Source of the DNA: Gordius sp. MW1
Lineage: Eukaryota; Nematomorpha; Gordioida; Gordea; Gordiidae
Direction: 5' to 3'
Length of the DNA stretch: 64,000 nt
Assembly: GCA_964036665.1 (NCBI GenBank)
Contig: OZ038526.1
Coordinates: 17,670,001-17,734,000 of the forward strand
Position 1 is the first letter of the stretch. Every line of letters starts with the position of its first letter. A program made the translations under genes and the position numbers. The notes under the pieces were generated by a model. That model did not search any database. It worked only from the letters and a program-made list of their open reading frames with translations, and had not been told where the DNA came from. Below are positions 11,041 through 63,077 of this stretch, in pieces.

Positions 11041-11135
11041 TTAAAAATTCATATTCTCCTAAATTAAAAATTCATATTCTCCTAAATTAAAAATTCATAT
11101 TCTCCTAAATAATAAATTCATATTCTCCTAAATAA
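11041..11135. repeat. Short tandem repeat before gag
   Basis: About four copies of a 23-25-bp unit containing attcatattctcctaaat occupy the untranslated leader between the primer-binding site and gag. Confidence 0.85.
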
Positions 11136-11143
11136 AATACCAC

Positions 11144-11974
11144 ATGGATACACAATCGTCTGACAATTCAACTCTCTACAATGAGACAGCATCCAACACT
11201 CCCACCACTGCAAACACATCACCAGTATACATCAAGCTACCTACATTTCACCTCAGAAACATCCAAATCTGGATAGCTCAGGTCGACGCAATATTTTCCA
11301 CTAGGAAAATCACATCACAAAGAGTCAAGTATGCTTACCTTTTAGAATCTCTCCCGGTTGAGATAGCCGAAGAAGTGGCCGACCTTATACTTAACATCCC
11401 AGATGAAAACCCTTATGAGGTGTTAAAGCAAGCCTTAATCAAAAGAATGGGTGAGAGTGAAGCAAAAAGAATAGACAAGCTGTTCAAGGACATATATTTG
11501 GGAGACAAAACACCGTCCCAATTGCTTAGGCATTTGAAGAGCCTTGTCGGGGAACATCAAATGAGTGATAAAATTCTAAAAACCCTTTGGACACAAAAAC
11601 TTCCAAGGGAGGTAACAGGTATCTTAACATGCGTAGGAGAAGAAAAGTCTCTAGCACAGTTGGCTGAGGTGGCAGACAAAATCTACGAGACATATACGCC
11701 CAACAGCGTAGCTTCCATAGCAAGCCCTCAAATGAGCCAAACAAACGAAGTCCAGGAACTGGTAAAAATGGTCGCACAGTTGGAATTGAAAGTAAACCAG
11801 CTGGTCAATCAGCCACCACAAAGTAAAAAGGTTTGGAGATCCTCAAGCAGATCACGGTCAACATCAAGACACCGTCGGGAAGAAATTTGTTGGTATCACC
11901 ACAAGTTCAAGGGTAACGCTCAAAAATGCACACAACCATGTGCATTTACCTCAAACTCCCAGTCAAAAAACTAA
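11144..11974 (+). CDS. gag: Gag polyprotein of the Gypsy element
   Basis: A complete 276-residue frame starting at the first ATG after the leader. It encodes the structural protein that packages the retrotransposon RNA into cytoplasmic particles. The N-terminal 30 residues are Ser/Thr-rich. The central part (LPTFHLRNIQIWIAQVDAIF) is typical of this group, where the core reads LPxFxxxxPxxWFxQxEAxF. The C-terminus has a basic Ser/Arg stretch, then CWYHHKF...CTQPC, a C-H-C-C cluster resembling the nucleic-acid-binding motif of CsRn1-clade Gags. Its end overlaps the protease frame by about 50 bases in another frame, so pol is probably made by frameshifting. Confidence 0.85.
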   Translation: MDTQSSDNSTLYNETASNTPTTANTSPVYIKLPTFHLRNIQIWIAQVDAIFSTRKITSQRVKYAYLLESLPVEIAEEVADLILNIPDENPYEVLKQALIKRMGESEAKRIDKLFKDIYLGDKTPSQLLRHLKSLVGEHQMSDKILKTLWTQKLPREVTGILTCVGEEKSLAQLAEVADKIYETYTPNSVASIASPQMSQTNEVQELVKMVAQLELKVNQLVNQPPQSKKVWRSSSRSRSTSRHRREEICWYHHKFKGNAQKCTQPCAFTSNSQSKN

Positions 11975-14560
11975 CTGACCTTTCCATTCAGGCGACTTCC
12001 GGAAACGGTCATAAACCAAGTCGCCTATTCTACATCATTGATCGTACGTCAGGACATAAGTTTTTGATTGACACAGGAGCTGACGTGTCCATCATTCCAA
12101 GACCCGTCAATTCACCTAAGGTACCAAATGGTCCAGTATTGCAGGCGGCCAATAATAGCAATATCTCTACCTATGGACAAAAGATGTTGTCCCTCAATCT
12201 AGGTCTGAGACGCCCAATACAGTGGTTATTTCTGATCGCCGAGGTACACACCCCTATCATTGGAGCCGACCTCTTGCACCAATACAACATCATCGTAGAT
12301 GTCAAAAACCAGCGATTAATTGATGGTCTGACTCACGTAACTTCAAAAGGAATTTCCACCCATCATCAAACGTTAGGAATCCGCATAGCTCTCTCGAGTC
12401 AGGTCTCTAAGTTGGAATCTGTGATCAACAACTTTTCATCACTCCTAACTCCTTAAAATTTCACCCAACAAATTTCAACCAACGACATCTTTCACCACAT
12501 AGCAACAAAAGGGCCGGCACAATACCCACGTCCAAGGCGACTTACTGCTGAAAAACTTAATGTTGTTAAGAAAGAATTTCAATATATGTTGGAAGGGAAT
12601 CATAAGGAAATCTAAAAGCAACTGGGCGGCACCAATACATTTGGCTGCTAAAAAATCAGGTGACTGGCGTCCGTGTGGAGATTATAGAGCCTTGAACAAA
12701 GTCACCGTACCAGACAGGTACCCAATTCCTCACATTCACGACTTCACAGCTAACCTTCACGGAAAAGCAATTTTTTCTAAGCTGGATTTAGTTAGAGCCT
12801 ACCATCACATTCCGGTAGCGCCGGACGACATCTGTAAAACAGCCGTGACGACACCATTCGGTCTTTACGAATTCACGAGGATGCCGTTTGGTCTAAAAAA
12901 TGCAGCTCAAACGTTCCAAAGATTCATAGACGAAGTTTTGCGAGGACTGAATTACGCCTACGCGTACATAGACGATGTACTTATAGCAAGCGGCTCAGAA
13001 GAGGAACACGAGGTACATCTAAAGACCGTCTTGCAACGACTCCAAAAGTACGACCTCAGGATCAACCCTGCAAAATGTCAATTTGGAGTGCGAGAATTAG
13101 AGTTCCTGGGTCACAAAGTTTCGGCCGCAGGTATTATTCCGTTACCAGAGAAGATTGAGGCTATTAAAAACTTTGCAACGTCAGTTTCATGTAAACAACT
13201 CCGAAGATTCTTAGGCATGATCAACTTCTATCGAAGATTTCTGCCCAATATTGCTAAAACCCTAAATCCGTTGACAGACATATTAAAGAATCCGCAAAAA
13301 TCTATAGCGTTCAACAAACTGCAGGAAGAAGCCTTCGACACAGCAAAATCCGCTCTAATCAATTTTACCAAGCTAAATTTTTTGAATACCAGTCCAGAAA
13401 CCCAAATTACACTAACAACAGACGCCTCTAATTCAGCAGTCGGTGCGGTATTACAACAAACAATGGCCGGAGAGACTACACCAATAGCGTTTTTCTCTAC
13501 TAAACTTCAGCCAACACAATCACGATACAGTACATTTGGTCGTGAGCTTCTCGCCATTTACCTAGCAATCAAGCATTTTCGACACATCCTGGAAGGCCGA
13601 ATATTTACCGTGTACACCGACCACAAACCACTCACATACGCCTTTGACGCTAAGCCTGATAAGTACTCTCCGAGAGAGATACGACAGCTCGACATAATCT
13701 CACAATATACCACTGACATTCGCTTCATTAAAGGCGAAGGAAACACAGTAGCAGATGCTCTATCTCGGATAGGAGTAGACGCGGTAAATCTTCCAAAAAT
13801 GCCAGAATTAGACGACATTAGCAAGCACCAGAAAAACGACAAGTCTTTGGAAGGTTTAGAAGATACTACTTCACTAAAACTACAAGTATTACCCATCCCA
13901 GGGTCAGATAACAAAATCCTTTGCGATTTGTCGACTACTAAACCTCGACCGGTCATACTTGACGCACTGAGGAGAACAGTTTTTGACCATTTTCACTCGT
14001 TATCACACCCAGGAGTTCGATCCACCCTAATGCTCATCACTAGTCGCGTAGTCTGGCCATCTATCAACAAGGACGTCACTAACTGGGCAAGAACATGCCT
14101 AAGATGTCAACGTTGTAAAGTACACCGACACACCATTACGAAACCAGGTACTTTTAAACAACCCGATGCCAGATTCGCTCATGTCCACTTGGATGTAGTG
14201 GGACCACTACCACCCTCCAACGGGTTCACTCACATGCTAATGGCAGTTGACCGTTTCTCGAGATGGCCCATGGCCATACCACTTAAAGAAACATCCGCCG
14301 AAGTTATCGCGGACAAATTTATCAAGAACTGGGTGGCAAATTATGGGGTTCCGAGTACAGTTACCACAGATAGGGGATCCCAGTTTCAGTCACAGCTTTT
14401 TAGAGAGTTCGCGAATATTTTAGGATGCGAACACATTAAAACTACAGCTTACCTCCCGTCCGCGAACGGGGTAGTCGAACGTTTCCACCGGCAGTTAAAG
14501 GCTTCGTTAAAAGCCTCAGGAAACACAAAATGGAGTGAATTCTGCCCTTTGTCCTATTAG
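11926..14560 (+). pseudogene. pol: Pol polyprotein of the Gypsy element, interrupted
   Basis: In order: an aspartic protease with LIDTGADVSIIPR (catalytic DTGA) and IIGADLL; reverse transcriptase with [14 protein letters not shown] and YIDDVLIAS (catalytic Asp pair); RNase H with [14 protein letters not shown] and the VYTDHKPL motif; a chromodomain-free integrase with the HHCC finger (HSLSHPG...CLRCQRC) and core Asp, Asp, Glu in [15 protein letters not shown] and NGVVERFHR. The frame breaks at a TAA at 12,454, shifts near 12,594, and shifts again near 14,550. The order protease-RT-RNaseH-integrase is that of Gypsy. Key catalytic residues remain, so damage is recent or slight. Confidence 0.9.
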
Positions 14561-15096
14561 GTATCCGCACAACCATCAAGGAAGACATTGGTCGCACACC
14601 GGCGGAAGTGCTATACGGGACTAACTTATGTCTCCCAGGAGATTATTTCTCACAAGAAACAACGCAACAATCAGCAGAACAAGTACATCAATTCGTCGAA
14701 AAGTTGAAAGAAGCGATGATGGCGTCGCCGTACCCCGTGCCACACCACCATGGCGAAACAAAAGAACAGGTAAATCGGTACCTCTGGGAAACACCGCAAG
14801 TGTTTGTCAGAAATGATACAGTACGCAAACCACTCACCCCACCCTACGATGGGCCCTTCAAAGTCTTACTTCGTAGACCAAAGTACTTTATAATCGAGAA
14901 AAATGGAAAAAAGGACTCCATATCAATCGACCGATTGAAGCCCGCTTATGTAGAAAGCAAGAAACCGGTACATAATCAAGAAACCTCCCTCAAGAAACCT
15001 ATTTTACAAGAACCAGAGCAGGAACAACAACCAGTCAAAACCACTCGCAGTGGCAGACATGTCCATTGGCCCAAAAGACTTTGCCAATACAAGTGA
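14545..15096 (+). pseudogene. Gypsy integrase C-terminal part, other frame
   Basis: After the shift near 14,550 the integrase continues: [20 protein letters not shown], then YGTNLCLPGDYF and PYDGPFKVLLRRPKYF, the GPY/F-like module that follows the catalytic core. The frame ends at 15,096, 71 bases before the right LTR. Confidence 0.85.
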
Positions 15097-19000: not shown

Positions 19001-21674
19001 TTTAATATTGTTAAATATTAAAAGTTTGTGTTTTATAGCTTAGAAAGCTTCCTAAACAAATTTATAAGGTAAATCTTAATGTGTTTTTGTAGAGATTGTT
19101 ATGTTAAAATCATTGATTTAAAAGCTTTATTAATATAAAAGTATTACATAAACTTGACAATCATGAAATGGAATTAAAGTTTAAATGTATTGCATATAAA
19201 TAAAATATCACGTTGGTTCTGGAGTCCTTAATGAAATAAGGTCTTATAATAAAAGATCAGAACCAATCAGCACCTGCTGATTCATATTCTACCCATAAAT
19301 TAGGCATTGATAAATAAAATTATACTGCCATTTGATAAGCCAAATACCTAACCTTAACAAATTTGACCATATATTGAAAAAATATTTGTTTAATGGTCAG
19401 ACCTAAATTTGGCACCCTCAATTAAATATGATGTTTTTCTCCTCCTGCTACTTATTAAATATCATTCTTGTTTTACATTCCTTAACAAATGATTCTCCTT
19501 TTTTAAATTTATTGTGATAACTTTTTATGGTAGAATAGCTAAAGTGTGTTTGTAAGGCTAAATCTTTTAGGCTAACCTTCTCTGTCTTAGATTTAATTAT
19601 TTCTTTCTTCATTTCATTATCTTGTACAAAATTTCTTTTACGTTTGTAAGCTCGCACCATTTTTAATGTATGAATGAATTAGAGATATTTATAGCCCCGC
19701 TCTAAATACCTCATAAAAAAAATATTTTTGCGAATTGTTTTGAGATAGTAATCTTAAAAAAATAGTTAATTTTATTTGAGAAGATAAGGATAGCCCCCAG
19801 CACGTATAGCCCCGATCTCCCCTAAGGATACCTCAATTTTCGTGCCTGAAACGGTTGCAAATATAGGCAATTTTGATCAAATTCTTACACAACTCCAGCT
19901 TTTAGGGAAAATTAAAATTAGATCGAAACTAAATTAAAGAACTCAAAATACATTGAGACTGGTATATATAATGGATTAACATCGGTGATAGGTGACATTT
20001 AGCCTCGATTAAAAAGTGAGCTTATAATCGCCTTAAAAAGCGCACGTTTTTACTTTGAGCAAGGACAACCCTGCATTTTACTTAACTACTCCCTCGGTAC
20101 CTTTTAATACGAACATAAAAATGTGACAATCTGCTTTTGTCAACATACTATATCATCAGAATCAATTAAATGTTCATTAACTTTCGATTAAAGTTTTGCA
20201 AGTCTTTTGATGGGGCTGGGCATGGACATTTTCAATTTAAAATATTGGGCTTATATATCATTTGGCTCGGTTAGGTGCATGATGGTATCCATTGATTGTA
20301 CGTAGTAACTCAAAAATTAACAGCCACCATTATTATTCTCAGTGTCAAATTTTTTTTTATAGTTCACATGAAATATAGTAAAATGTAAATTTATGCCTAC
20401 AAAATAATTAAAGGGCATCAGATTTTTTTATTATCATTAATTATTTTATCAAAAATCTCTGCAGGATTGACACTTAATTAAAACTTAATAAAAACCTGAC
20501 ATGAAAATATAACAAAAAATCATCTATAAAAATGACGCCTTCGACCTAGGGCTCGAACACGAATACGAACAACTTCAATTTCCGGCCGGAAAAGTGGAGG
20601 TCGACGGATACGTTATATGTTACGACCCTAGCCTAACCCTGCGTTCGGACCACTCGCCCCTCCTGACTACACAAACCGGCCTGGTTCGGGCCGTTTTGAG
20701 CGCCGCTAAAAAGGCGAGAAAACCTGCTGTAATTGCGCTCACCAAAGTGGACCTCTTTTTCCCTCCTCCTCTTGCCTCGGGTTTGCAAAGGCCCGACGAG
20801 GCCCCCGATTCTCGAAAGTTCCTGGACGGGTTGATTAAAGTAAGGGCATGAGCTTGGGCCAATAAACATTTACTCCTTTTTTACCCCTCTACCCATAATT
20901 TGCTAAAATTTAGAGTCAATTGGATTTTTTGGTGAAATATCAATGCTTTTAACGCGACAATTTAAACGAATCTATAATCGTTTTTGTTTCTTAAATTATT
21001 GGTTAGATCGTTGCAGCTGAAAATGCATTTTTTCAAAATATTGTATGGAATGATATAACGACTCAGTTTGATGTTTCAAATAAACTTGGGAACGTTTAAG
21101 ACCTCAATGATAAGATATATTGTTGAAACAAAGATTATAAATAATAAAAAGTTTGTTCGATTTATTTTATTAACCAAACCAGTATGTATATCGTATATGA
21201 AATCTGTTCGACTCGATGTTGTATAATAAGACGTTATAAATATTAAAAGTTGATGCATTTTTGTGCCCGAAAATCCACTAGTCACCGTGCCCATTTTAAA
21301 CTTAAAAATACCCTCCAAAATTTAAGGAAATCAAGGAGACTTGCTTAACTGAATGCAGTTGTGCCTCCGCCGTACCCATCGTAGAAGTTTCTGCCCGGCT
21401 TGACGTTAACGTGTCTACCGTGTTCTCCACCCTTGGTGGCCTTATCCTCAAAGCCCGAGGCATCGCCCCGCCCTCGGTGGGCGGATCAGAAGCTGTCTTG
21501 ACCCCTCGCGTCAAATCTTATCACCATCATCACCCCCGCTCCGCCCTACCATCTCGCTTGTGGAATCCTTCTGAGGTCCCGGGAGGTAAGGGCGCCGGTC
21601 TCGCCCCTTCTGCTACCTCCAAACCCCCTCACGCCGGGGGCACACCCCTCAGCCCCTACTCTTCGGCTTACAAG
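16008..21674 (+). CDS. RhoGAPp190: p190 RhoGAP exons 1-5: N-terminal GTPase domain
   Basis: Exon 1 gives [10 protein letters not shown], the first strand and start of the GTP-binding loop (family NISVVGLSG). Exon 2 gives [21 protein letters not shown] and [16 protein letters not shown]. Exon 3 gives VEQTEFIDD and CKDQLG. Exon 4 gives GYVICYDPS and ALTKVDLF (TKxD guanine-binding motif). Exon 5 gives [11 protein letters not shown] (the SA motif), then a Ser/Pro/Gly-rich tail not typical of the family. About 30 extra residues separate GLTG from GGSGKS, and an Ala stands where the first Gly of GxxxxGKS should be. Intron 3 is 3.3 kb and full of transposons. The junction between exons 4 and 5 has two possible solutions. 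Confidence 0.9.
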
Positions 21675-24600
21675 GTAGCTTTATTTTTGCAAATGGCTCC
21701 AAAGTATTATTATCGCCTTGAGACTGACTAAGGCAATTTTTTTACAATATTTAGTTTGTTTCAAGATTTATAAATGTTCTTTCCATTAATCATTGAAATT
21801 CATATCAGCCTAGGGTCAATATTATTTGTGGGGATAAATATACATCATGGTTCATTCATTTTTAGATAATATTAGGTGACAACCAAAATCTATACTCAAA
21901 CTTATAAAAATTTAAAACCATGTTATTAAATTCATGATCCAGTTAGCGAGAGCCTGTTATAAATCATTTCAATCGTTGTAGTCGCTTTCTCATTTCCTGA
22001 CTCTAATTTAAAAGGCGTTTCTGAAGACCTACCTTCCCGCCAGGGTAGCGACCTTTGAAGCCGCGCGAGCTTCGGACCTCGCCCGTCGAGATCACGTGAT
22101 CCGCGGATTTCGCGCCCACCTATCCCATACCCTCACCGACTCCCGAGTGTTTTCGGGACCTCAGGGATGGAGAACTTTCCTCACCTTGGCAGTACCTTCG
22201 TCCTCGTCCGATTCGGGCGGTACCGAACTTGACCCCCTAGAAACCGCTCTCACCACCCTGAGTACCGGGGAGTGTCAAGCCCTGTTTCGGGCCCACATTA
22301 CTGAAATGAAGCGCGAGGCCTTGCACGAGGCTGTCCTCTTTTATTTGGCCATCCTGGACCGACACATCCTGAAGCGCGCTTTTCCCATCATTGAAGCCCT
22401 GAACTACGATAGGTGAGTTGTTGGCCGAGCAGGGGCATTGAAAGAATGAAATGGCTAATTTTTTTTATATGAAGATCGAGGTAAAAAATGTAAAAGTAAA
22501 AGGGCCATCCCATGTCGAATCGTCAAAAAAAAGACGATTTTCGACCGTCCATCTCAGATATGGATAATTTTTGGTGAGGATGTAGGCCTCATATATTAGA
22601 GTAATTTCGGAAAATTTTAGCCATTTTGGGCCAATACTTTTTAAGTTATGGATGTTTAAAGGGCCAAAATCACGCTCGGGACCGTTTTAGATTATACTAT
22701 TTTTGTCATATTTTTGAAAGTAATGGCGCTATTCAATCAAATTTTGAAAATTCTCTATCGAAATAATTTAACAAAAAACCCCAAACTTTTGCGGTTAATT
22801 TTTTGTGGTAAAATTAGTTAAAAATCATAAAAACCTATTTGTCGATTATATGAAATCACCAATTTTACAGTTTGCATTCCTTTATGACCCATTATCATAT
22901 TTCAATTATAAAAAGTTTGGGAGGGCTACGAGATGGTTAAAAATTCAATAAATTACATTTCCACAAAAATGGCGGTATAATCAATTATCACAAGAAATGT
23001 GAAATTATTAAAATACATGGTAAATAAATAATATTGGAATAAGAATAAACTTAAATTTTGAACTTTTATTTGCGCGATGAACCGAGTTTGAAAATTAATT
23101 TAATTTTAATTAACCTAAAAAATGGTCACAACTAGCAAGCAATAATTTTTTAAATACCTTTCATCCCGCAAATTTTTTATAAATTTAGGATGGATCATCA
23201 ATACAAAAATAATAATATTTGAGCAATTTTGCCATCATGTTAGTATTTATTTTTTTCCAACCTCACATTTATTTTAGCCTACCCCTATATCATTTAAGTT
23301 AAAATTCAAGATCTAATTTTCAAACTCGGATAATTGCCCATTGCGCAGAGAAAAAGATCAAATTTAATATTATTTATTTACCATGTATTTTAATAAATAT
23401 CACATTTGATGAAAAACAACCATCATAATATGTTCTTGTGATAATTAATTATACCGCCATCTATAAATATTTTTGGTGAAAATGTAATTTTTTGAATTCT
23501 TGACCACCTCGTAGCCTGTCCCAAACATTTTATGATTGAAATATGATAATGGGTCATAAAGGAGTGCACATTGTGTAATTGGTGATTTCATATAATCGAC
23601 AAAATTTTTATGATTTTTCACTAATTTGACCACAAAAAATTAACCGCAAAAGTTTGGTTTTTTGTTAAATTATTTCGATAGAGACTTTTCTATGGAAAAA
23701 ATGCACCAAAATTTGATTAAATAGCGCCATTACTTTCAAAAATATGACAAAAATAGTAAAATCTATAAAACGGTCTCGGGCGTGATTTTGGCCCAAAATG
23801 GCTAAAATTTTCCGAAATTACTCTAATGCATGAGGCCTTCATCCTCACCAAAAATTATCCTTATCTGAGATTTGGTCGAAAACGTTTTGATTTGTCATGG
23901 AATGGCCCAAAACGTCTTTAAACACACCAGGTGCATTGTGACATGGGCGTAGCCAGGGAGGGGCGGCTGCCCCCTCTAAATCTAAAATTTGTTGAAATTT
24001 ATTAAAATTATGGCTAAAATTTCAAAAAATAACCATTTTTCTCTCCCTAAATTATTATTGCCCCCCTCTAATTCCAATGCTGGCTACGCCCATGCAAATT
24101 GGGTGTCGTAATAACGTTTTAAAATATAATATAGCTGAAGCAAACATTTCTTACCTCAAGCATAAACGAGTTCACCTAACGGCAAAAAAGTTATCATAGA
24201 AGCGTTGAATTCTGTGATAAGATATGTATCGGATTAGAAAATATTATCACGAGCAACATTTATGATGAACGGATAAGTTTTAGAGCTATATATGTGGCTA
24301 ACATTTTTTAATATCAATTTAAGGTTTACAGCCATTTCTGCTGTTATATAAAGGTTATGATATTATTTATAATTTAATTTTGCAGTCGTTCGCCTCTACA
24401 GCTTTATTATTTACTTAAATGATAATAACGATCGCCTTCTTTCTGGTTAGCCTAATTACATTGTATATTTATGACTAGAGACCTGCAAAATCGATTTTTT
24501 TAAGGCCCGGCCCGAGCCCGGATTTAAAAATTAAAAAAAAAAATCATAGCATCTTTAAAAAAAGGCCCGGGCCCGGCCCATAATATTGGTAATTGCAGAA

Positions 24601-50397: not shown

Positions 50398-53300
50398 CAG
50401 GGTTTCTTTCAGGGGGGAGCCCGGGGGGTATTACCCCCCGGGCAATTTCAAATGCCCCCCCGGGGAGTTTTGACTGAAGAAAGCATGATTCATGAACTCA
50501 AGTTCCATCATGAAGTAATAAATTATATTAATAAGCTAAAATTGAAATTCAATAAATTATTTTAATTTGTCAATAAAAAAAATATAAAATTGGCGAAATT
50601 AAATTTTTTTTACAAATCAGGTGGTAATCATTCATAAACATAAATAAATTTTGAATTGCATGTTTGGAAATCATAAAAGAACTCTTTTACACTACTTTAG
50701 TAAAAAGGAAAAGCCTAATAAAAAAGATGGTAAATATGATTTAATTTGGAATAATTTTAATTATGCAACAGGTGAAGATATGAATAATTGTTCTGTAGAA
50801 AAAACTCTGGTTTGTTCCATTCAATGTTATAATGAAAAGGATGGTATTTATATTTATATTGGTCATTTTAAATGTATATTAATATTAACTAATGATAATT
50901 TGCTTGCAAGTTGCAAGCATATAAAAAAGATCTTTTTTGCTTAATAAATTTATGTATTATGAAAAGGTGAGGATAATTCTGTGGAGAAACTGGTTTATTC
51001 CATAGATTGTCAAAATGAAAAAGATGGTATTTACATTTATACACACAAAATAATGTTTATAACTAATGATAATAGCTTCCAGCAGTGAAATTAACAATAA
51101 CATGAACTCTGAAAGAGGCAAGAAAGATTAGATTTTAAGTATTATATATATTTTCATGTTTTAGGTCAAGATGAAAATTGTAATTCTGCTGGAGTGGGGA
51201 AAACTGTCTCTTCTTTTTCTTATGATAAAAATGCTGGTAATTAAAATTATGCAAGTTGTTTTTTTTTTATTAATTTATATTGATAAAGATGAATGTATTG
51301 GCAGCTCTACTAATTGCTCAGTCTCTGAAAGTGAAAAGCATGGGAAAAATTTAAAACTTAAACCATCATATAAATTTATGATTTCATGGACATCTAAATA
51401 CAAATGGCTAATTTTTGATGAAGCCTTAGGTGGGGCTTTATGCTCTGTTCTATTTACAACAAAAACGATTTATTTATTCAACAAAAAACAAAGGGTGTGT
51501 TCATTAATGTCCCGTTTACAAATTACAGAAAAGCGACAGGAGAAAGAGGAAAGCTTTTAAAACATGAACGATCTGAATACCATAGAAAGGCAATGGCCTT
51601 TGAAAATATGCGCCATAAACACCAGCCGGTTCATGCTATCCTTAATCATCAATCTGATGCTGAAATTGCGGAAAAGCAAGCTTTCAAAATATTGATGAAA
51701 AGTCTATACTTCCTAATCAAGGAAGATGTTTCCTATACAACGAAATATGAAACCATTATAAAAAATTTGATGGCCCCCTGCATTTCAGACTTAGCAAAAT
51801 GGTTAAATAAACGAAGTGAACGTTCTACATATTGTAGTAAAGATACCGCCAACGAGTTATTGCAATCAATGGGCGAGGTTCTTGATAAAATAATAATTGC
51901 AGAACTTAAAGGCAAAGATTTTTCTTGGCAGATGAATCAACCAATATTGCCAACCAATCCGAACTTTCGATATGTGTTAGGTATGTCTCTGAGGGTGCGA
52001 TTATAGAAAAGTTTTTGTGTATAGTCCCCCTTTTAAACACTTGTTCGGATACAATTTTTAATTGTATTGAAAACCAAATTAATAAAAGGGGCCTCTCTCT
52101 ATATAACATTGTTGCTTGTGGATTTGATGGGGCTGCAAACTTTTCAGGCTGTATTTCTGGAGTACACAAACTGATTTCTAAAAAAATTGGGAGAGATGTC
52201 CTTTAAATTCATTGCAGAGCCCATGTCTTATCTCTTGCAGTTACAAGTGCAAGAAATAAATTTCCTTATGTCAAAAGATTTTTTTTTATCGTGAATGACA
52301 TATATAAACTCTTCCATCAGTCACCTAAAAGAGAAAATATTTTTCATGAAATCCAACAGATCTTGGAAGAACCTATTCTCAAGATTCCCCAGCCTACCGA
52401 TATACGTTAGCTCAGTCATCACAATACTCTAAACGCCATTAAAAGAGCTTATGGGTCTATAATGATGACCTGTGAACATCTCCATAAAGATGGGGCAGAT
52501 TTAGCCTCCTTAGCAGGAGGCATACTCCTTGAAATGCGGAAATCCAGCTTCTTATTGACGTTTTGTTTGTTAGTTGATATATTGGGTTCCGTATCTCAAT
52601 TAAGCAAATGTCTACAAAAAGCTGACCTACCAGTGGAATCTCTTCCGTCATTAATAACGTCGGTAACGTCTCATTTAGAATCCATTTATGACAATATAGT
52701 AGGACTTGAAAATAATGATTTTTTTATAAATTATTATGCCTTAATGACAAAAGTATCACTGAAATGTGACATTTGTGAAAATAAAGCCTGCAAAGAATCT
52801 CTGGGAAAGTTTACTAAGACTGTTATATCTGAAATTAATAATAGGTTCAATAAATCTACAGTTGAGCTTATTTCAGGATGCCCATTTTTCCAGAGTTTTG
52901 AAAGGCTCCAACAGATCCGAGAATCTGACGTAAAAATGATGTGTCGTCATTTTCACGACGTTGACGAAGAATATCTTTATGCCGACATAAAATCATTCAA
53001 ATTTCTTGCAGCTACTTTGAATGGACCAGAATCAGAAACACCTTTAAAATTTATTCAAAAATGCAATTTGGGGTATGAAGAGTTGAAACGGTTCGGTGCC
53101 AAACTAATGACAATACCTTTGTCAACGGCGACTGTTGAAAGGTCCTTTAGTGCAATGAACCGAATTATGGTTGCATTAAGAAACAGGCTAGGGGAGATAT
53201 CTTTAGACCACTGTATGAGAATATCTATAGAAGGGGCTGACCTTCCTACTGAAGAATATCTAGATATGGCGATGAAGGAGTATGCCTTTAAAAAACAAAG

Positions 53301-53530
53301 AAGAATTCGGTTACTTTCTTAAAAGAACACTTGCCCGTTAAAATATTACATGTAGAACATGTATTTATTTAATGATTATGCGTGTATGTATATATTTATA
53401 TATCACTTATATCACCAATAAAAATCAGTAAATATTATACAAAATGGTTTAGAAATTAAAAAAAAATTTTACCCCCCCCCCCGGAAATTGAAAATACACC
53501 CCAGGAGCATTTTTTCTGAAAGAAACCCTG
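50398..53530 (+). mobile_element. hAT transposon, inverted pair copy 1
   Basis: A 3,133-bp element with inverted ends cagggtttctttca and tgaaagaaaccctg, followed by G/C runs. It encodes a hAT transposase with a zinc-finger N-terminus. Copy 2 at 53,590-56,726 is nearly identical and inverted. Its right flank is attactta, which matches the reverse complement of copy 2's right flank, not its own left flank. Confidence 0.9.
50651..53322 (+). pseudogene. hAT transposase (ZMYM/DUF4371-like) in copy 1, broken
   Basis: Pieces in order: a first frame of 97 residues (MFGNHKRTLLHYF, 50,651-50,944), which may be a separate exon; a TTF-type zinc-finger region (51,171-51,560); a catalytic region with ESTNIANQSEL and GFDGAANFSG (51,925-52,206); and an intact 286-residue C-terminal part (52,462-53,322) ending in the dimerisation domain (IPLSTATVERSFSAMNRI, LDHCMRISIEG). 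Defects relative to copy 2: a frameshift in the zinc finger near 51,450, a deletion near 51,928, TAA at 52,204-52,206, TAG at 52,408-52,410. Confidence 0.85.
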
Positions 53531-53589: not shown

Positions 53590-56500
53590 CAGGGTTTCTT
53601 TCAGAAAAAATGCTCCGGGGGTGTATTTTCAATTTCCGGGGGGGGGGGGGGGTAAAATTTTTTTTAATTTCTAAACCATTTTGTATAATATTTACTGATT
53701 TTTATTGGTGACATATAAATAGATACATACACGCATAATCATTAAATAAATACATGTTCTACATGTAATATTTTAACGGGCAAGTGTTCTTTTAAGAAAG
53801 TAACCGAATTCTTCTTTGTTTTTTAAAGGCATACTCCTTCCTCGCCATATCTAGATATTCTTCAGTAGGAAGGTCAGCCCCTTCTATAGAAATTCTCATA
53901 CAGTGGTCTAAAGATATCTCCCCTAGCCTGTTTCTTAATGCAACCATAATTCGGTTCATTGCACTAAAGGACCTTTCAACAGTCGCCGTTGACAAAGGTA
54001 TTGTCATTAGTTTGGCACCGAACCGTTTCAACTCTTCATACCCCAAATTGCATTTTTGAATAAATTTTAAAGGTGTTTCTGATTCTGGTCCATTCAAAGT
54101 AGCTGCAAGAAATTTGAATGATTTTATGTCGGCATAAAGATATTCTTCGTCAACGTCGTGAAAATGACGACACATCATTTTTACGTCAGATTCTCGGATC
54201 TGTTGGAGCCTTTCAAAACTCTGGAAAAATGAGCATCCTGAAATAAGCTCAACTGCAGATTTATTGAACCTATTATTAATTTCAGATATAACAGTCTTAG
54301 TAAACTTTCCCAGATTCTTTGCAGGCTTTATTTTCACTAATGTCACATTTCAGTGATACTTTTGTCATTAAGGCATAATAATTTATAAAAAAATCATTAT
54401 TTTCAAGTCCTACTATATTGTCATAAATGGATTCTAAATGAGACGTTACCGACGTTATTAATGACGGAAGGGATTCCACTGGTAGGTCAGCTTTTTGTAG
54501 ACATTTGCTTAATTGAGATACGGAACCCAATATATCAACTAACAAACAAAGCGTCAATAAGAAGCTGGATTTCCGCATTTCAAGGAGTATGCCTCCTGCT
54601 AAGGAGGCTAAATCTGCCCCATCTTTATGGAGATGTTCACAGGTCATCATTATAGACCCATAAGCTCTTTTAATGGCGTTTAGAGTATTGTAATGACTGA
54701 GCCAACGTATATCGGTAGGCTGGGGAATCTTGAGAATAGGTTCTTCCAAGATCTGTTGGATTTCATGAAAAATATTTTATCTTTTAGGTGACTGATGGAA
54801 GAGTTTATATATGTCATTCACGATAAAAAAAAATCTTTTGACATAAGGAAATTTATTTCTTGCACTTGTAACTGCAAGAGATAAGACATGGGCTCTGCAA
54901 TGAATGTAAAGGACATCTCTCCCAATTTTTTTAGAAATCAGTTTGTGTACTCCAGAAATACAGCCTGAAAAGTTTGCGGCCCCATCAAATCCACAAGCAA
55001 CAATGTTATATAGAGAGAGGCCCCTTTTATTAATTTGGTTTTCAATACAATTAAAAATTGTATCCGAACAAGTGTTTAAAAGGGGGACTATACACAAAAA
55101 CTTTTCTATAATCGCACCCTCAGAGACATACCTAACACATATCGAAAGTTCGGATTGGTTGGCAATATTGGTTGATTCATCTGCCATTAAAGAAAAATCT
55201 TTGCCTTTAAGTTCTGCAATTATTATTTTATCAAGAACCTCGCCCATTGATTGCAATAACTCGTTGGCGGTATCTTTACTACAATATGTAGAACGTTCAC
55301 TTCGTTTATTTAACCATTTTGCTAAGTCTGAAATGCAGGGGGCCATCAAATTTTTTATAATGGTTTAATATTTCGTTGTATAGAAAACATCTTCCTTGAT
55401 TAGGAAGTATAGACTTTTCATCAATATTTTGAAAGCTTGCTTATTTTCCGCAATTTCAGCATCAGATTGATGATTAAGGATAGCATGAACCGGCTGGTGT
55501 TTATGGCGCATATTTTCAAAGGCCATTGCCTTTCTATGGTATTCAGATCGTTCATGTTTTAAAAGCTTTCCTCTTTCTCCTGTTGCTTTTCTGTAATTTG
55601 TAAACGGGACATTAATGAACACACCCTTTGTTTTTTGTTGAATAAATAAATCGTTTTTGTTGTAAATAGAACAGACAGAGCATAAAGCCCCACCTAAGGC
55701 TTCATCAAAAATTAGCCATTTGTATTTAGATGTCCATGAAATCATAAATTTATATGATGGTTTAAGTTTTAAATTTTTCCCATGCTTTTCACTTTCAGAG
55801 ACTGAGCAATTTAGAGCTGCCAATACATTCATCTTTATCAATATAAATTAATAAAATAAAAACAACTTGCATAATTTTAATTACCAGCATTTTTATCATA
55901 AGAAAAAGAAGAGACAGTTTTCCCCACTCCAGCAGAATTACAATTTTCATCTTGACCTAAAACATGAAAATATATATAATACTTAAAATCTAATCTTTCT
56001 TGCCTCTTTCAGAGTTCATGTTATTGTTAATTTCACTGCTGGAAGCTATTATCATTAGTTATAAACATTATTTTGTGTGTATAAATGTAAATACCATCTT
56101 TTTCATTTTGACAATCTATGGAATAAACCAGTTTCTCCACAGAATTATCCTCACCTTTTCATAATACATAAATTTATTAAGCAAAAAAGATCTTTTTTAT
56201 ATGCTTGCAACTTGCAAGCAAATTATCATTAGTTAATATTAATATACATTTAAAATGACCAATATAAATATAAATACCATCCTTTTCATTATAACATTGA
56301 ATGGAACAAACCAGAGTTTTTTCTACAGAACAATTATTCACATCTTCACCTGTTGCATAATTAAAATTATTCCAAATTAAATCATATTTACCATCTTTTT
56401 TATTAGGCTTTTCCTTTTTACTAAAGTAGTGTAAAAGAGTTCTTTTATGATTTCCAAACATGCAATTCAAAATTTATTTATGTTTATGAATGATTACCAC

Positions 56501-56726
56501 CTGATTTGTAAAAAAAATTTAATTTCGCCAATTTTATATTTTTTTTATTGACAAATTAAAATAATTTATTGAATTTCAATTTTAGCTTATTAATATAATT
56601 TATTACTTCATGATGGAACTTGAGTTCATGAATCATGCTTTCTTCAATCAAAACTCCCTGGGGGGGCATTTGAAATTGCCCGGGGGGGTAATACCCCCCC
56701 TGGGCTCCCCCCTGAAAGAAACCCTG
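53590..56726 (-). mobile_element. hAT transposon, inverted pair copy 2
   Basis: A 3,137-bp element, the same family and almost the same sequence as copy 1, in opposite orientation. Ends cagggtttctttca and gaaagaaaccctg; right flank taagtaat. The G/C runs near the ends differ in length between the copies. Confidence 0.9.
53792..56470 (-). pseudogene. hAT transposase in copy 2, broken elsewhere
   Basis: On the - strand: first frame 56,470-56,177; zinc-finger and linker frame 55,841-55,365, including LCSVCSIYNK and LKHERSEYHRKAM; catalytic frame 55,349-54,777 with LMADESTNIAN, GFDGAANFSG and IHCRAHVLSLAV; then 54,749-54,297 (RWLSHYNTLNAIKRAYGS) and 54,346-53,792 (dimerisation domain). Defects differ from copy 1: GAA to TAA near 55,366, GAA to TAA near 54,778, and a small deletion near 54,310. 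Where copy 1 is broken copy 2 is often intact, and vice versa. Confidence 0.85.
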
Positions 56727-56924
56727 TAAGTAATGGTAACTCATTTATTTCCTTTCATTGTTAATATTTTGCATTTACTTCCTGTTTGATCTTGTAATCG
56801 TAACCATTACTCCAATTTGGACTATCTAATTCTACGACTACTACAACATTTAAAGTTAGTTAATAATATAGAATTATCTTGGTAAAAAAGTTTTTTAATT
56901 GTAAATATATTATTTATATTTAGT

Positions 56925-57470
56925 ATGTCTAACAAATGTATCAATGATCCTAATTCCTTCTGCTACACTTGTGGCAAATACTTTACTAAAAATAAGAAAA
57001 GAAGGAAAATCACAGATTCTATTAGCGATATATACGAAAAATATTTTAAATGCCAAATCACTGGTCAGGATAAACCGTTTGCCCCTCACGTCATGTGTCC
57101 TTCATCTTATTGAGAGATTGGGATAAGCAAAAAATAAAATCCTTAAAATTCACTAAGCCCTTAGTATGGACCAAAGTAAAACCACACGACAGATTGCCAT
57201 TTTTGTATAACTAACATCTACGACCATACAAAAATGAGCAGAACAACCATCTACCCAGATCTTCCTTCCGCAACAAAACCAAATCCTAAAACACAAATTT
57301 TAACAACATATCCATCTCTTGAAAAACCTAAACCTTTACGACAACCTATTTTATTTAGCCAAAATTAGATAATTTTATAAAAGATCTTGGTTTGCCAAAA
57401 AATAAGGCCGAGCTTTGTGCTTCCAGATTTAGTAAGAAAAACCTCCTGGAACCTGGGGTTTAAAACTTTG
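56925..57470 (+). pseudogene. Decayed transposon-associated zinc-finger gene
   Basis: The start reads NDPNSFCYTCGKYFTKNKKR, ITDSISDIYEKYF and DKPFAPHVMC, matching a protein seen in many arthropod genomes near transposons (family form: FCYVCGxF...WAPHxVCxxC). After a stop at 57,113, broken frames continue with YPDLPSATKPNP and then FIKDLGLPKNKAELCASR and KKNLLEPG; the family continues with a GTTFSWYR motif, which is missing here. Stops and shifts show it is dead. The family's function is unknown to me. Confidence 0.6.
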
Positions 57471-57915
57471 TTTTAAATTTTTTGAACTTGTACTAAAACA
57501 TTTAAATCGTATTTAATATGAATTTTATTAATTGTTCCATAAATTGACCAAAGAGATGAGTAAATAAAGCATTTGTATCTATGCATCTAAAAGCGCCTAA
57601 TTGTTGGGGTCGAAAAAAGGTTGCTATTGACGTAAAGTTTAATAAATACTTTTCATGGACTTAATGAGTAAAATGTGCACTTATAAGATGGAAGGTTTCA
57701 CAATTCATTTATAATTAGTAGTAAGACAATTTGATCTTAGGCTGATTATGAAATAATGATATTTTGAGATGGAGGAAAATTAAAGGTTTTAAATTTTTAC
57801 ACTAATTGATTTTAAAATATAGGAATCAATAAAACAAAAATTGCATAGCAATTAATAACTTAAATGTTTGATGTTGATATCACGTTAGAAAATTAAAACA
57901 CAGAATATAGATAGG

Positions 57916-57924
57916 GATTTATTA
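57916..57924 (-). terminator. Polyadenylation signal of the MULE-derived gene
   Basis: AATAAA on the - strand (tttatt on the + strand at 57,918-57,923), about 53 nt beyond the stop codon. Confidence 0.5.
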
Positions 57925-57975
57925 ATATAAAATCTTTATAAACATATTTACAAGTAATTTATATTAAATTAATTT

Positions 57976-59600
57976 TTATTTAAATAATTTAGAAAAGAAT
58001 GATTTAGTTTTAATATATAAGGAAACTATATCTAAAAATTCAACTGTAGATAGAATATTACTCTTGTATAATGTAATGCAATTTTCAATTTTTTCTTCAA
58101 TTTCATCATGCTTTTTCACTTTTCTTGTAGGGTTAAGTCCAGCCATAATTTGTAAATGATATATCTCTAAATGACTTTGCCTCGTCTTTAACATAGTTAT
58201 AAACTCAAATATATCAGGGTGAGCTGATGTGAACATTTTCCGCAGGCCAATATTAAAACCCTCTAAGTGACGATTTATGTATGGACCAGGAATTCCATAT
58301 CTAGACCATATTTGGATAGGAAATCTTGCTTCAGCTCCTAGCTGCATAAATAAATTGAGATACATCAATCTATTATAAATAAATTTAGCTTACCCAAGTT
58401 TGATTCATATAATGAATTAAGGCATGTAAATTCTGGTCACTTATGCTCTCAATAAATATATAAGTTGAGCTCACAACCTGTGGCACATCTTCAGGATTAG
58501 CTAATGGTAATGCTAACATCCTGCGTATTAAAGTCTTTATTAAAGGAATTTCATCATATTTTTTAGCGAGGCCCAAATTTCTCACATTACCCCAAACTGC
58601 TTGAGTGTAATGATCAAAATATCCTAAAAATAATTAATTTACATTTATATTAAAGTAACCTTTGATTATGACCCCTGGATAAAGTAAGTTAATTGCTTCA
58701 ATTATGGATGGATCATACTCAACTTCAATCTGATTAAAACATGGATCTACTTTATATTTATCACAAGCATTATTAATCATCTGAAACATAGTTATGTAGG
58801 TAGATCTGTCTTTATCAGGTAATAGCATATACAAAACAGCAAGCATGGTTTTATCCAGTAAAACATGACAACTATACATTTGTCCATACGAAGAAGGGCA
58901 CACACATAAGGTTGCACACATATATATAGTGGTGGCATTACCAAACACCTTTAAAAATTTTTCAGTCCCAAATAAAAGGATCCCATTATCATTGCCTATA
59001 AGTTGATATTATTATATATAGTTTTCAACTTTACCAAGTAAAAATGGATGACCATCCATAGTTTTAGTATATTCTTCAGATAGTACAATGCTTGATAACT
59101 GTGCTATACGATTACCATGATCATCTTCTGGTCCAGTAATGATTGATACTATTGGAGATTGGGTTAAAGAGAAAAATGATTCACATTCTTGATTTTCAAT
59201 TACATTATCTACTTATTATTTGAAAAAATCAAATTTCATAATTACTATCTCCATTAGAATAGGCCATTTGATTTTGATACATAACATTTTCTACTATACA
59301 ATTTAAATAGTTATAAATTAAATTACCTTGATTCGAATAAAGCCCCTGGTTAATTTGCAAACTTTCTGTTTCTATAAATAATGTTAAATTAATAAGATTT
59401 AAAATAACCTGATACATAGGATGTCGAGCAATCTGGATCTTCTTTGGGAAACACCTCTTCCCGGTCGACAATCCCTACGCCCCTACAAATTTTTTTAGAT
59501 GAAATAGTATCAGAATCGTGTCCTGAACCTAATTAAATAAATTTAATAAAGTCAAGGTATTACTATTTTTAAATTAAAAAGCGGTATTACTCCTGCTCAT
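57976..59600 (-). CDS. MULE-transposase-derived protein, seven exons with tiny introns
   Basis: Exons (- strand): 59600-59591, 59528-59409, 59371-59246, 59211-59035, 58995-58660, 58623-58394, 58341-57976; 454 residues. All six introns are GT-AG and 62, 37, 34, 39, 36 and 52 nt long; every junction keeps the frame. Exon 5 holds the MULE core, ILLFGTEKFLKV, YGQMYSCHVLLD and AVLYMLLPDKDRSTY; exon 6 has YFDHYTQAVWGNVRNLGL and LIRRMLALPLA; exon 7 has RFPIQIWSRYG, INRHLEGFN and HPDIFEFITMLK. The usual DGTF reads CATL, the DFE motif EYD, and GCYFH reads GYFDH, so the catalytic residues seem lost. The fold signature and splicing remain. No FLYWCH finger is seen. The ATG in the 10-base first exon is a choice; an AATAAA lies 53 nt after the stop. 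It may be a domesticated transposase. Confidence 0.8.
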
Positions 59601-61100
59601 CGTAGAATTGCGTCCATACAGTTGGTAACAATTTGAGTAAATGAACCAATATGGCCACTAAAATTTAGTTTAAAAAAATTAAATTTTGAATGTATATAGT
59701 TAGTTTAACAAAAATATAGGCAATATAATGAATAAATTTAAATTTAACTTATTAAAGATAAATCAGTACAGAATCCATTTTAATAAGATATATGAAAAAA
59801 TAAATATTTAAAAAATACTATTAAAGTGTATACAAGGGGCTACTTTTCAGCTAAATCCCAAAATGGGCCGTATTAAGGTGTAATATTTGGTACTTTATTT
59901 AAAAATTATTTTTAGCATACATTAAGCTAAGTAAATTGTCTGTCCGCAAAACCTCAGTAGTAATTAATTCATCTTATAAAAAATTTTTTGTCGTATATCA
60001 ATATATAAAAGAATATAAATTTGTTATTATGAGAAAAAATTAACTGATTAAAAGCTTTTTATTATTATATATAATCTGAAGTTTTAGTTATAAATTTCAA
60101 ATGTTTTTAAATGTGTGAATAGCTAGATTTTATGTCATAGGCTATTACTATTAGGATTGTGGGATATTTTATATTCCTCATATTACCTCCGGCTCAATTA
60201 TATTTTAAATTAATTTACTCTCGTTTGATTACATCATATTTTATATTTATAATTGTACATTTAACAATCTCCCATGGTTTCAAGATGTGGGCATTAAAAT
60301 ATTCACGATTTGTTACTTATATCGCTTCGCGATGTCATGCCGTTGCAGATTATTATTTTACGAATATTTTGATTTTAAGATTGTAGGCTAGGGCATTTCG
60401 TTATTTTTTTTGGAAAATTTATACGCGCATAAATAAATGAGGGAAAAGGCCTTCGCCGTTTAAAACATTATAACTATATCATATATATATATACAGAACC
60501 GATTAATTATACTGAATTTGAATCTGCAACATAGTCGTTATAATATAAGTAATTTGTGTTACCATTACTGATCGATATAGTAATGCCCCCAGTTTATTCG
60601 AAATTTATGATAATTTGAAATTGAAAAATAAAATATATAAAAAAACAAGGACATTATTTTTGCCTACCATATAAATTATAGGTGATATTGGTGGGATACG
60701 GGTCAGTCTTATGAGAAGACTGGTGGCAAGGAATAATTTTATAATCAAGGGTCAACAAATCGAATTACTATTAATATGATAACGGCTTTCTTTTATAATC
60801 AAATTTATCATATTCGATGCTGATACATATAATCATAATTAAGCATACAAAATGAATTGCATAATCCCACCAACTTGATTTATAAATCAGAGATAGCTAA
60901 TATCAAAACAAATTTACTATTTGGGCATACGCTAGGGCAATATCTTGGTCTACTCAAAGATATAAACGAATCTATCTAGGACATGCACAAAAAGGTTATA
61001 CGTAAGAGGAAGATTGTGAGCTTTTTGAGAGCCAATTACTGGCAGTCCCTCTCAAAATCACTAATGTAACTTATAAAACTTATGTAGCATAAATAGGAGA
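59601..61100. other. AT-rich, no supported gene
   Basis: Upstream of the MULE-derived gene and so where its promoter should lie, but I see no convincing element. A short (TA)n run is at 60,480-60,492. The word ggtgatattggtggga near 60,680 resembles the tRNA-like MITE end at 29,153. Confidence 0.4.
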
Positions 61101-61111
61101 TTGTTAATCAC

Positions 61112-61300
61112 TCAATCGACGTCTGATTTATTGGACAAATGTTTGTAAAATTGATTAGTAATTCTGGCCATATTGGCTACATTCCTGCTAAGAAGAATTG
61201 CTAACCTATACGTCTTCAACATTCGGATCATTGATGAGTGAAGGCCCTTCCTTGCAGCGTTACCTGCAATTTGAATGGTCATAATATCTGATCGCATCAA
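61112..61300 (-). pseudogene. Possible histone H2A-like remnant
   Basis: The frame contains IQIAGNAARKGLHSSMIRML then TYRLAIL, resembling the H2A segment with LELAGNAAR...RHLQLAI. Residues downstream align loosely with the H2A docking region. The N-terminal half of H2A is absent, and the acidic patch is not recognisable. It may be chance, since the core identity is short. Confidence 0.3.
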
Positions 61301-61414
61301 AAAAGCTTAAAAATGACTTCTCACTATGGTCGCGAATACTAATTGTCGTATAGACGGATGTCGTATATATAGATTCTCCCCTGGCGTATCCGTAATACTC
61401 GTATATATGGATTC

Positions 61415-61570
61415 TCCCCCCCCCCCCCTTGTCACCCTATGCAAAAGTTACGAATTTCCCCCAACCCCCCGCGCCTCTATACAAAAAGGTTGTAATACCG
61501 CGTTTCTCATAAATACTTATTTGACCCTCCCCCCTTCTTTCTTTATACATTAATTGCAAGTTCGTTGATT
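61415..61570. repeat. C-rich low-complexity stretch
   Basis: Runs of C near 61,418-61,430 and several ccccc groups to 61,535, with no inverted partner. It could be a decayed C-rich MITE. Confidence 0.4.
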
Positions 61571-61746
61571 GTTTTATTACCTAGCACTAGCGGCCAATTT
61601 GCCACATACCCCTTTAATAAAACTATCTTTAAACGTAGCACATCTGCTCGCAAATAAAAAGTGAGACAGATATATATTTTTAAATATTCTATCCCCCGCA
61701 CCCCGAATTTATACTAAATAATATAGAATGTGAATTAATATACATA

Positions 61747-62963
61747 CAGTCGAAATTGTATAAGTGAGAATCGGATAAATGGTAATATTTATAAATGATA
61801 AATAGCCGCGATTTTTTGAACACATTGCTCAAAATTTACGCTAAATCTATTTATAAGTGAGAATTGGTTAAGTGCTAAAAATCGGATAAGTGGTAAGATT
61901 CTTCAAATTTTTTAATGAATTTTTAATACAAATTTAGGTTTATAAGTGAGAATGAAAAAAACATCATATTAGACTGAAAACATGTTACCAAATATTCTAA
62001 AGTAATATGTTCCAGATCACATTTATAATTCTGATGAAACAGGTTTGTTTTATAAAGCTGGAAGCAAAAGCACTTATGCTTAATACTGAAAAAGTTATGG
62101 GTTCAAAAAAGCAGGCTTCAATGTTAATCTACTCTGCAAAATGATAGCAGGATTGATGGTGCAGGTTGTTTGAATGTGTTTACAGAAGATTCTAGCAGCT
62201 CAGATTCTTTAGTTAGCACCTCATTTTCTACAATCAATGATTCGCTTACGTATGATGATGATTGTTTTAGCTGTTTTGGTGATTATACTGATGCCGATAT
62301 TATAGAGGAAATAGGTAATTTTAATTTATAATTATTTAAGAACATTTGGAAAGTCAAAATGATCCTGCCTTTGATTAGTATAATGAAATTGAATTAGTCG
62401 AAGAAATACCCACCAAAGAAGACGCACAGATGGGATTTCACTGCAAAAATAATCATATGAATTCTTTATAGAAAACAAACTCTTTAAATGTGAAAGTCAT
62501 CAGAAGCTTATCACACAATTTTTTACCAAAAATTGTACTAATTTTCAAATTGCATTAAACTCTAGTGTATACCTATTATAATTTCAATAAAACTTTATTC
62601 AGTAATAAACATTCATTATTTTTATAAATAAATCATTTTTGTTTCTTTGCCTGTCAAATTTAATTATAACTTTCAATGTGTATATGCAATGGATATAAGT
62701 GTCAGCTGATCCTGTTTAACACCATAAAGTGCGTAAAATAAGTTTGCTCAAAATCTTTAATTATTTAAAATAACCTATATATATGTATTTTATATTGAAA
62801 AACGTAATTTTTGGAACCTACTTGATAATAATATTACGAGCTGAAATTTTTTTTATAAATTAAATGAATAATTAAATTAATCGTTTAAGTGCTAAAAATC
62901 GCTTAAGTGAGAATTTTTTTATAATTTAAGGCCCAGCGATTCTCACTTAAGCGATTTTGACTG
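61747..62963 (+). mobile_element. Tigger/pogo-like DNA transposon, decayed
   Basis: Inverted ends of about 28 bp: cagtcgaaattgtataagtg and, at the right, cacttaagcgattttgactg. TA flanks on both sides. Inside, a frame near 62,020-62,090 reads NSDETGLFYKAGSKS, the first catalytic motif of Tigger/CENP-B-like transposases (NxDETGLFWK). Near 62,290 an acidic tail-like frame ends in DADIIEEIGNF. The rest is unreadable. Confidence 0.8.
62020..62340 (+). pseudogene. Tigger-type DDE transposase remnant
   Basis: A short segment with SDETGLFYKAG keeps the first catalytic Asp of the DDE triad; downstream frames are interrupted by stops at 62,083 and beyond. Only perhaps a quarter of the usual protein can be followed. 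Confidence 0.65.
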
Positions 62964-63077
62964 TATATAGTTCCCAATAAAGATACACAGAAAATTTCCG
63001 CAAAACCGATTCTCACTTAAGCGATTTTGACTGTATATAGTTCCCAATAAAGATACACAGAAAATTTCCGCAAAACC
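62938..63077. repeat. 70-bp tandem duplication at the right end of the Tigger element
   Basis: The unit starts gattctcacttaagcgattt and ends ttccgcaaaacc. It comprises the last 26 bases of the element plus 44 bases of flank. The two copies (62,938-63,007 and 63,008-63,077) look identical. Confidence 0.9.

What the first reader, a model, noticed from the sequence alone, without database searches (positions are those of the whole stretch)
57976..59600. Intact MULE-derived gene that seems to have lost its catalytic residues
All seven exons join in frame through six GT-AG introns of only 34-62 nt, giving 454 residues without a stop. Transposon remnants around it are wrecked, so this frame appears to be kept by selection. 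Yet, from memory of the family motifs, the first Asp (DGTF) reads CATL, the second motif (DFE) reads EYD, and the Cys of GCYFH is Tyr. Loss of catalysis with preserved folding motifs is what one expects of a domesticated transposase. Direct evidence is the open reading and phases; the catalytic inference depends on alignment.
Basis: partly seen in the sequence, partly recalled or inferred. Interest (0 to 1): 0.78.

Follow-up and report, generated by a model that had tools for sequence, protein, structure and literature searches.

The report
Dead jumping-gene protein kept by hairworm
A horsehair worm carries one lone, still-readable copy of an ancient jumping-gene enzyme that has lost residues needed to cut DNA, while relatives with those residues remain elsewhere in its genome; this suggests, but does not prove, that the worm has put the protein to a use of its own.

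Summary
On the minus strand, 59600-57976, seven exons join in frame into 453 aa. The genome is a horsehair worm's: mitochondrial COX1 is 97% identical to Gordius. Residues 124-451 align to FLYWCH-MULE transposases (hhalign E 1.2e-47), although Pfam alone finds nothing. In 50 of 91 in-genome relatives read, D1 is kept in 41 of 41 copies that cover it and D2 in 42 of 44 (many copies are near-identical). The gene is single-copy, shows no FLYWCH finger, shares one mini-intron position with its relatives, lacks another and has private ones. Neutral evolution over the whole branch is rejected. Best reading: a domesticated, catalytically dead MULE core acting by binding. Not shown: transcription, orthologues, exons 1-3, function, or selection after catalysis was lost. 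In passing: some relatives lie in near-perfect palindromes.

The parts
57976..59600 (-). MULE-derived gene, whole model, 7 exons, 453 aa
   Evidence: single DNA copy in the genome
59591..59600 (-). exon 1 (10 nt, proposed ATG); conjectural
   Evidence: open reading only
59409..59528 (-). exon 2; conjectural, no homologue found
   Evidence: only itself found
59246..59371 (-). exon 3; conjectural, no homologue found
   Evidence: only itself found
59035..59208 (-). exon 4; homology to the MULE family from residue 124
58996..59034 (-). intron 4, 39 nt, phase 1, at a column where none of 25 relatives has an intron
58660..58995 (-). exon 5: first catalytic position Cys170 (58916-58918) and second Glu236 (58718-58720); the relatives' phase-0 intron is absent here
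58624..58659 (-). intron 5, 36 nt, phase 1, same column and phase as in 23 of 25 relatives
58394..58623 (-). exon 6: Tyr257 in place of the CxxH Cys, His260 kept (58610-58612)
58342..58393 (-). intron 6, 52 nt, phase 0, at a column where none of 25 relatives has an intron
57976..58341 (-). exon 7: Trp344 (58306-58308) and catalytic Glu359 (58261-58263) kept; stop

Best explanation
A single-copy host gene of a gordiid hairworm, descended from an ancient FLYWCH-MULE transposase. No mobile ends and no FLYWCH DNA-binding finger are found, two of three catalytic residues are gone, and it is kept as a non-cutting RNase-H-like core. Shown: ancestry, catalytic losses, single copy, open frame, purifying selection on its branch as a whole. 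Inferred: that selection continued after catalysis was lost, and that the protein works by binding (to itself, to transposases or to chromatin partners) through the retained core and C-terminal region rather than by cutting. The fold name is recalled family knowledge; no structure was predicted.
For: Homology: hhalign probability 100, E 1.2e-47 over 328 columns; phase-1 mini-intron shared with 23 of 25 relatives. Catalysis: C170/E236/E359 against D/D/E; no Asp or Glu between residues 156 and 190 that could stand in for the first Asp. Exceptional among relatives read (50 of 91): D1 kept in 41 of 41 covered copies, D2 in 42 of 44, Cys in 49 of 50; the two D2 losses are in copies with stops; of 25 stop-free models of 400 aa or more, 24 have the full triad and one lacks coverage of D1 (several of these copies are identical, so they are not independent). 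Single DNA copy, in about 3.9 kb with almost no other genomic match, about 57460-61335 (in one search only 40 of 286 candidates were scored). FLYWCH: N-terminal halves of five relatives score 32-42 upstream, reached by 13 to 49 of 60 shuffles, against 234-350 in positive controls. Selection: omega = 1 on this branch lnL -6990.71 against -6978.52 with one common omega of 0.082 and -6977.58 with it free. Neutral tails of 0.05, 0.10 and 0.20 substitutions per nt cost 0.5, 1.2 and 2.9 lnL units. Simulated neutral decay leaves the 332-codon core without a stop in 11.5% of runs at 0.05 and 1.7% at 0.10 substitutions per nt, whereas 11 of 27 family-invariant residues have changed.
Against: No transcript, orthologue or protein evidence. 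The branch includes time as an active transposon, so selection after catalytic loss is not separated from selection before it; with omega free the branch length sits at its bound, so the branch is saturated. Loss of invariant residues as such is not special: of 67 columns invariant in eight in-genome relatives the window gene lost 27, but triad-bearing P0001 lost 23 and P0002 lost 37. Its end branch (1.77) is equalled by P0003 and exceeded by P0002. The N-terminal 85 residues are unsupported. Private introns could be ancestral and lost elsewhere. Codon-usage scores were no better than random open frames. A short neutral period is not excluded.
Confidence: 0.65

Rival explanations
1. A young pseudogene: an old single-copy MULE lineage stayed under selection as an active transposon until recently, then lost catalysis and is now decaying by chance without a stop yet.
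For: A short neutral tail is not excluded: 0.05 substitutions per nt costs 0.5 lnL and leaves 11.5% of simulated cores free of stops, 0.4% when frame-breaking indels at an assumed 0.1 per substitution are added. No transcript evidence.
Against: At that depth about 11% of codons are changed, yet both catalytic Asp codons are changed, the first (to TGT) by at least two nucleotides, and the Cys too. No stop-free long relative read shows a lost D1 or D2 (25 models, D1 not covered in one). A lineage with no sister copy and no ends found is unexpected for an active transposon.
Confidence: 0.2
2. A dead transposase kept because it hinders the intact MULEs of the same genome: it enters transposase multimers or blocks ends without cutting (a trans-dominant inhibitor, as with truncated P-element products; that analogy is recalled).
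For: Relatives with intact frames and triads coexist in the genome, including one pair with arms 100% identical and both transposase frames open; the core and C-terminal region are kept.
Against: Only about 27-36% identity to relatives, and no FLYWCH finger found to reach the ends; no direct evidence.
Confidence: 0.2
3. A still-mobile or mobilisable transposon copy with an unusual active site (C/E/E), or using a shifted acidic residue (D238).
For: E236 and D238 are acidic near the second position.
Against: Nothing acidic near the first position; D214A and D283A abolish Muta1 activity; single copy, no ends found.
Confidence: 0.03
4. A wrong gene model: the frame is a chance chaining of open stretches.
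For: AT-rich sequence with many possible splice sites; exons 1-3 lack support.
Against: Residues 124-451 align end to end with E 1.2e-47 across introns 4-6, one of which sits at the family's intron position. So this can hold for exons 1-3 only.
Confidence: 0.03

Closest known systems
Phantom / Muta FLYWCH-MULE transposases (Muta1 of Aedes aegypti, PMC5225508, passages and section 11)
   Same: Homologous core; D2-to-His spacing 24 residues as in Muta1; His, Trp and catalytic Glu kept
   Different: D1 is Cys, D2 is Glu, no FLYWCH finger and no TIR found, single copy
FAR1/FHY3 proteins of plants, MULE-derived transcription factors (PMC13306707, start of abstract in listings only)
   Same: Host proteins descended from MULE transposases
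   Different: Those are a family of transcription factors; here no DNA-binding finger is found and no function is known
TE-derived transcription factors in animals, FHY3-like and FLYWCH genes (PMC10027918, passages)
   Same: Animal genes proposed to derive from Mutator transposases
   Different: Those families are named by DNA-binding domains; this gene lacks the finger and keeps the dead core. The word Nematomorpha does not occur in that text
Ghost MULEs of invertebrates (PMC6446971, passages)
   Same: DDE domains without detected TIRs, for which the authors consider domestication
   Different: Their DDE domains are described as intact
Tm1 Mutator/Foldback elements of root-knot nematodes (PMC3169594, passages)
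   Same: Phantom-like transposase with foldback-like inverted ends, comparable with the palindromic hairworm relatives
   Different: No such ends were found at the window gene

Membership tests
MULE transposase (as homologous domain) | Sequence homology over the DDE core | tested here: met
   hhalign E 1.2e-47; best in-genome relative E 6.1e-43
MULE transposase (as homologous domain) | Direct match to Pfam PF10551 | tested here: not met
   0 families up to E 1; the other 5 of 6 members of alignment A1 match
MULE transposase (as enzyme) | DDE triad | tested here: not met
   C170, E236, E359
MULE transposase (as enzyme) | Conserved CxxH and Trp between D2 and E | tested here: inconclusive
   Cys is Tyr257; His260 and Trp344 kept
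Phantom (FLYWCH-MULE) transposon | N-terminal FLYWCH finger | tested here: not met
   59035-63000: five relatives' N-terminal 150 residues score 32-42, reached by 13-49 of 60 shuffles; positive controls 234-350. In the first trial with 8 shuffles each, L034's 42 exceeded its own 8. No Pfam match
Phantom (FLYWCH-MULE) transposon | Terminal inverted repeats and 8-10 bp target duplication | tested here: inconclusive
   99 inverted pairs in 55900-62500, the 25 longest seen are AT-rich and 70-95% complementary, no shuffled control; target duplication not scanned
Domesticated transposase gene | Single copy without mobile ends | tested here: met
   One DNA match; one relative family's end does not align nearby above shuffles; absence of ends as such is not proved
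Domesticated transposase gene | Purifying selection | tested here: inconclusive
   omega = 1 rejected for the whole branch, but the part after catalytic loss is not separable
Domesticated transposase gene | Orthologues at the same place in related species | not testable with these tools
   No second hairworm nuclear genome available; protein database gave 3 distant hits, twice the same
Domesticated transposase gene | Transcription and splicing | not testable with these tools
   No RNA reads available

The most novel reading that the evidence does not exclude
A dead MULE core, stripped of its DNA-binding finger, that the hairworm retains as a trans-acting brake on the intact MULEs in its own genome, some of them palindromic.
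Probability: 0.18. Interest if true: 0.68.

Novelty: new member of a known kind. Interest (0 to 1): 0.45.

Why it matters
Domesticated transposases are well known, and MULE-derived genes in animals have been proposed through families named by their DNA-binding domains (PMC10027918, passages). A case in which no finger is found and two catalytic residues are gone, but the core is kept, would ask what a MULE core can do without cutting. The same genome holds intact relatives, so a candidate inhibitor and its possible targets could be tested together. Four library searches with hairworm or Nematomorpha terms showed no title on a MULE-derived gene in hairworms; they listed 6 of 6, 15 of 19, 10 of 32 and 10 of 24 papers, and most subscription papers are not in that library, so this is weak evidence of novelty.

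Tried and rejected
Codon-usage scoring did not separate exons from random open frames and is not used as support. Inverted repeats around the gene are AT-rich and weak among the 25 of 99 shown. A match at 59850-59866 to the end of one relative family (2 mismatches of 17; 0.17 expected at up to 3) points away from the gene; a shorter pattern gave 2 matches with 0.87 expected, and a 162-nt end stretch does not align above shuffles: not taken as this gene's end. A first omega = 1 fit stuck at a bound (lnL -7141) was replaced by multi-start fits; the free omega of the branch (0.023) is not used because the branch length is at its bound. The joint neutral probability (maximum 0.0015, noisy) is not used as a p-value, since some invariant residues can change under function. 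Rows dropped: L001-L008, found with PF10551, score only 41-70 against this family and were left out of the triad count; 6 of 29 rows left out of the tree and the window protein trimmed by 121 residues; L054 and L058 left out of the ten-row invariant count; 41 of 91 relatives were never read.

Full report
WHERE. The window is C8:17670001-17734000 of a 211.8 Mb, 12-contig genome. Contig C12 holds a mitochondrial COX1 whose translation is 97% identical to Gordius sp. VVA-2019 and 92% to Gordionus alpestris: a horsehair worm, phylum Nematomorpha.

OBSERVATION. The gene lies on the minus strand, 59600-57976. Seven exons and six GT-AG introns (62, 37, 37, 39, 36, 52 nt) give 453 aa and a stop; G+C is 16% in introns, 32% in exons, and 40/33/24% at codon positions 1/2/3. 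The product has no Pfam match up to E 1. A search of 5.8 billion proteins gave three distant hits at 24-25% identity, two with MULE and FLYWCH domains and one with MULE alone, from the mite Galendromus; a profile search returned the same three.

WHAT IT IS. In its own genome the gene has one DNA copy but 93 protein matches, two of them itself; the best-scoring relative is 34% identical. Spliced alignment of relatives gives, for the complete ones, FLYWCH-MULE proteins of about 450-460 aa with two mini-introns (Pfam PF10551 and PF04500 in 5 of 6 members of A1, the sixth being the window protein). Against a profile of six transposases, residues 124-451 align at 30% identity with E 1.2e-47. On an alignment with 25 in-genome relatives, the phase-1 intron at column 337 is shared by the window gene and 23 of 25 (not L046, L032). 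The phase-0 intron at column 242 is in 20 of 25; of the other five, L063, L046, L052 and L059 are models that start beyond it and L061 has an in-frame insertion there; the window gene covers the column and lacks it. Its introns at columns 192 and 420 occur in none of the 25. The tree places the gene outside the 19 in-genome relatives used, on an end branch of 1.77; the branch joining those 19 has support 88/83 and is drawn open, and the program warns of long branches meeting, so the placement is uncertain.

CATALYTIC STATE. In mosquito Muta1, alanine at D214, D283, E419, H307 or W401 abolished transposition (PMC5225508, section 11 read). The residues aligned here are C170, E236, E359, H260 and W344. 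Among 50 relatives read (of 91), D1 is kept in 41 of 41 that cover it, D2 in 42 of 44, Cys in 49 of 50, His in 49 of 50, Trp in 49 of 49, Glu in 50 of 50. Many of these copies are near-identical, so they are not independent. The Cys and His exceptions are one locus, L032, whose model shows no second intron, so the reading there is probably unspliced intron. No FLYWCH region was found in 59035-63000: scores of 32-42 for five relatives' N-terminal halves were reached by 13 to 49 of 60 shuffles, while the same test on other relatives gave 234-350.

SELECTION. Of 27 columns invariant in ten transposases, the window gene differs at 11; leave-one-out losses were 0-3 for nine rows and 17 of 44 for the diverged P0002. 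Of 67 columns invariant in eight in-genome relatives it lost 27, P0001 lost 23 and P0002 37. So the number of losses fits its divergence; the loss of catalytic residues is what stands out. Neutral simulation from the present 332-codon core leaves it stop-free in 11.5% of runs at 0.05 and 1.7% at 0.10 substitutions per nt. On 296 codons and eight sequences, a wholly neutral branch (lnL -6990.71) is worse than a common omega of 0.082 (-6978.52), and each neutral tail tried lowered the likelihood. This rejects neutrality over the whole branch. It does not exclude a short neutral end, nor selection confined to the time before catalysis was lost.

SURROUNDINGS. Upstream, listed matches to 59530-61700 other than itself begin at query position 1807 (about 61336), though only 40 of 286 candidates were scored. 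Downstream, 56730-57975 has diverged copies over about 56918-57460 and short matches at 56730-56784 and 57812-57859. No convincing terminal repeats were found.

MECHANISM. Most likely a domesticated, non-cutting MULE core that acts by binding. Loss of both Asp is expected to abolish strand cleavage, by analogy with the Muta1 mutants. With no finger found, sequence-specific binding through FLYWCH is not expected. Whether it serves chromatin, another protein, or restraint of intact relatives is open.

RELATIVES AS CONTRAST. Of 17 neighbouring pairs of relatives closer than 25 kb, 14 are divergent, 1 convergent and 2 in the same direction. Five divergent pairs were compared: one on C1 (L034/L035) has arms of 2263 nt with 100% identity, each holding a whole open transposase model, around about 1.4 kb; three (L016/L031, L018/L023, L024/L030) are 98.9-99.9% identical over 3.9-4.0 kb with the ends not reached, and 5 of their 6 transposase models carry one or two stops; one (L019/L039) shares no such similarity. 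The convergent pair L036/L037 is 99.4% identical over 3.4 kb. In arthropod MULEs the longest terminal repeat reported is 1193 bp (PMC13359780, passages).

Noticed in passing
G000 C1:26599156-26605055 (L034, L035); also L016/L031, L018/L023, L024/L030: MULE relatives lie as divergent pairs in near-perfect palindromes, each arm holding a transposase gene reading outward: 4 of 5 divergent pairs compared; 14 of 17 close pairs are divergent. Both frames are open in the first pair only.
   Followed up: partly
window 50398-53530 and 53590-56726: An inverted duplication with arms of about 3.1 kb, 98% identical, holding open stretches that look like a hAT transposase by eye; family not tested.
   Followed up: partly
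G000 C8:2829490, C5:673008, C8:432389, C1:25292753, C3:93245, C4:356383, C4:378482, C4:1459297, C4:1486135: Nuclear copies of mitochondrial COX1, with two copies on each strand of C4.
   Followed up: no
window 59850-59866: 17 nt like the outer end of a palindromic MULE family (2 mismatches), pointing away from the gene; perhaps chance or another remnant.
   Followed up: yes
relatives, alignment columns 242 and 337: Transposon genes carry two conserved introns, mostly 33-56 nt, short for an animal as far as I recall.
   Followed up: partly
window 20513-22416: Open frames that by eye resemble a conserved host signalling protein with a GTPase-like stretch; identity not tested.
   Followed up: no
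window 11132-15096: Open frames that by eye resemble a Gypsy-like retroelement; not tested.
   Followed up: no
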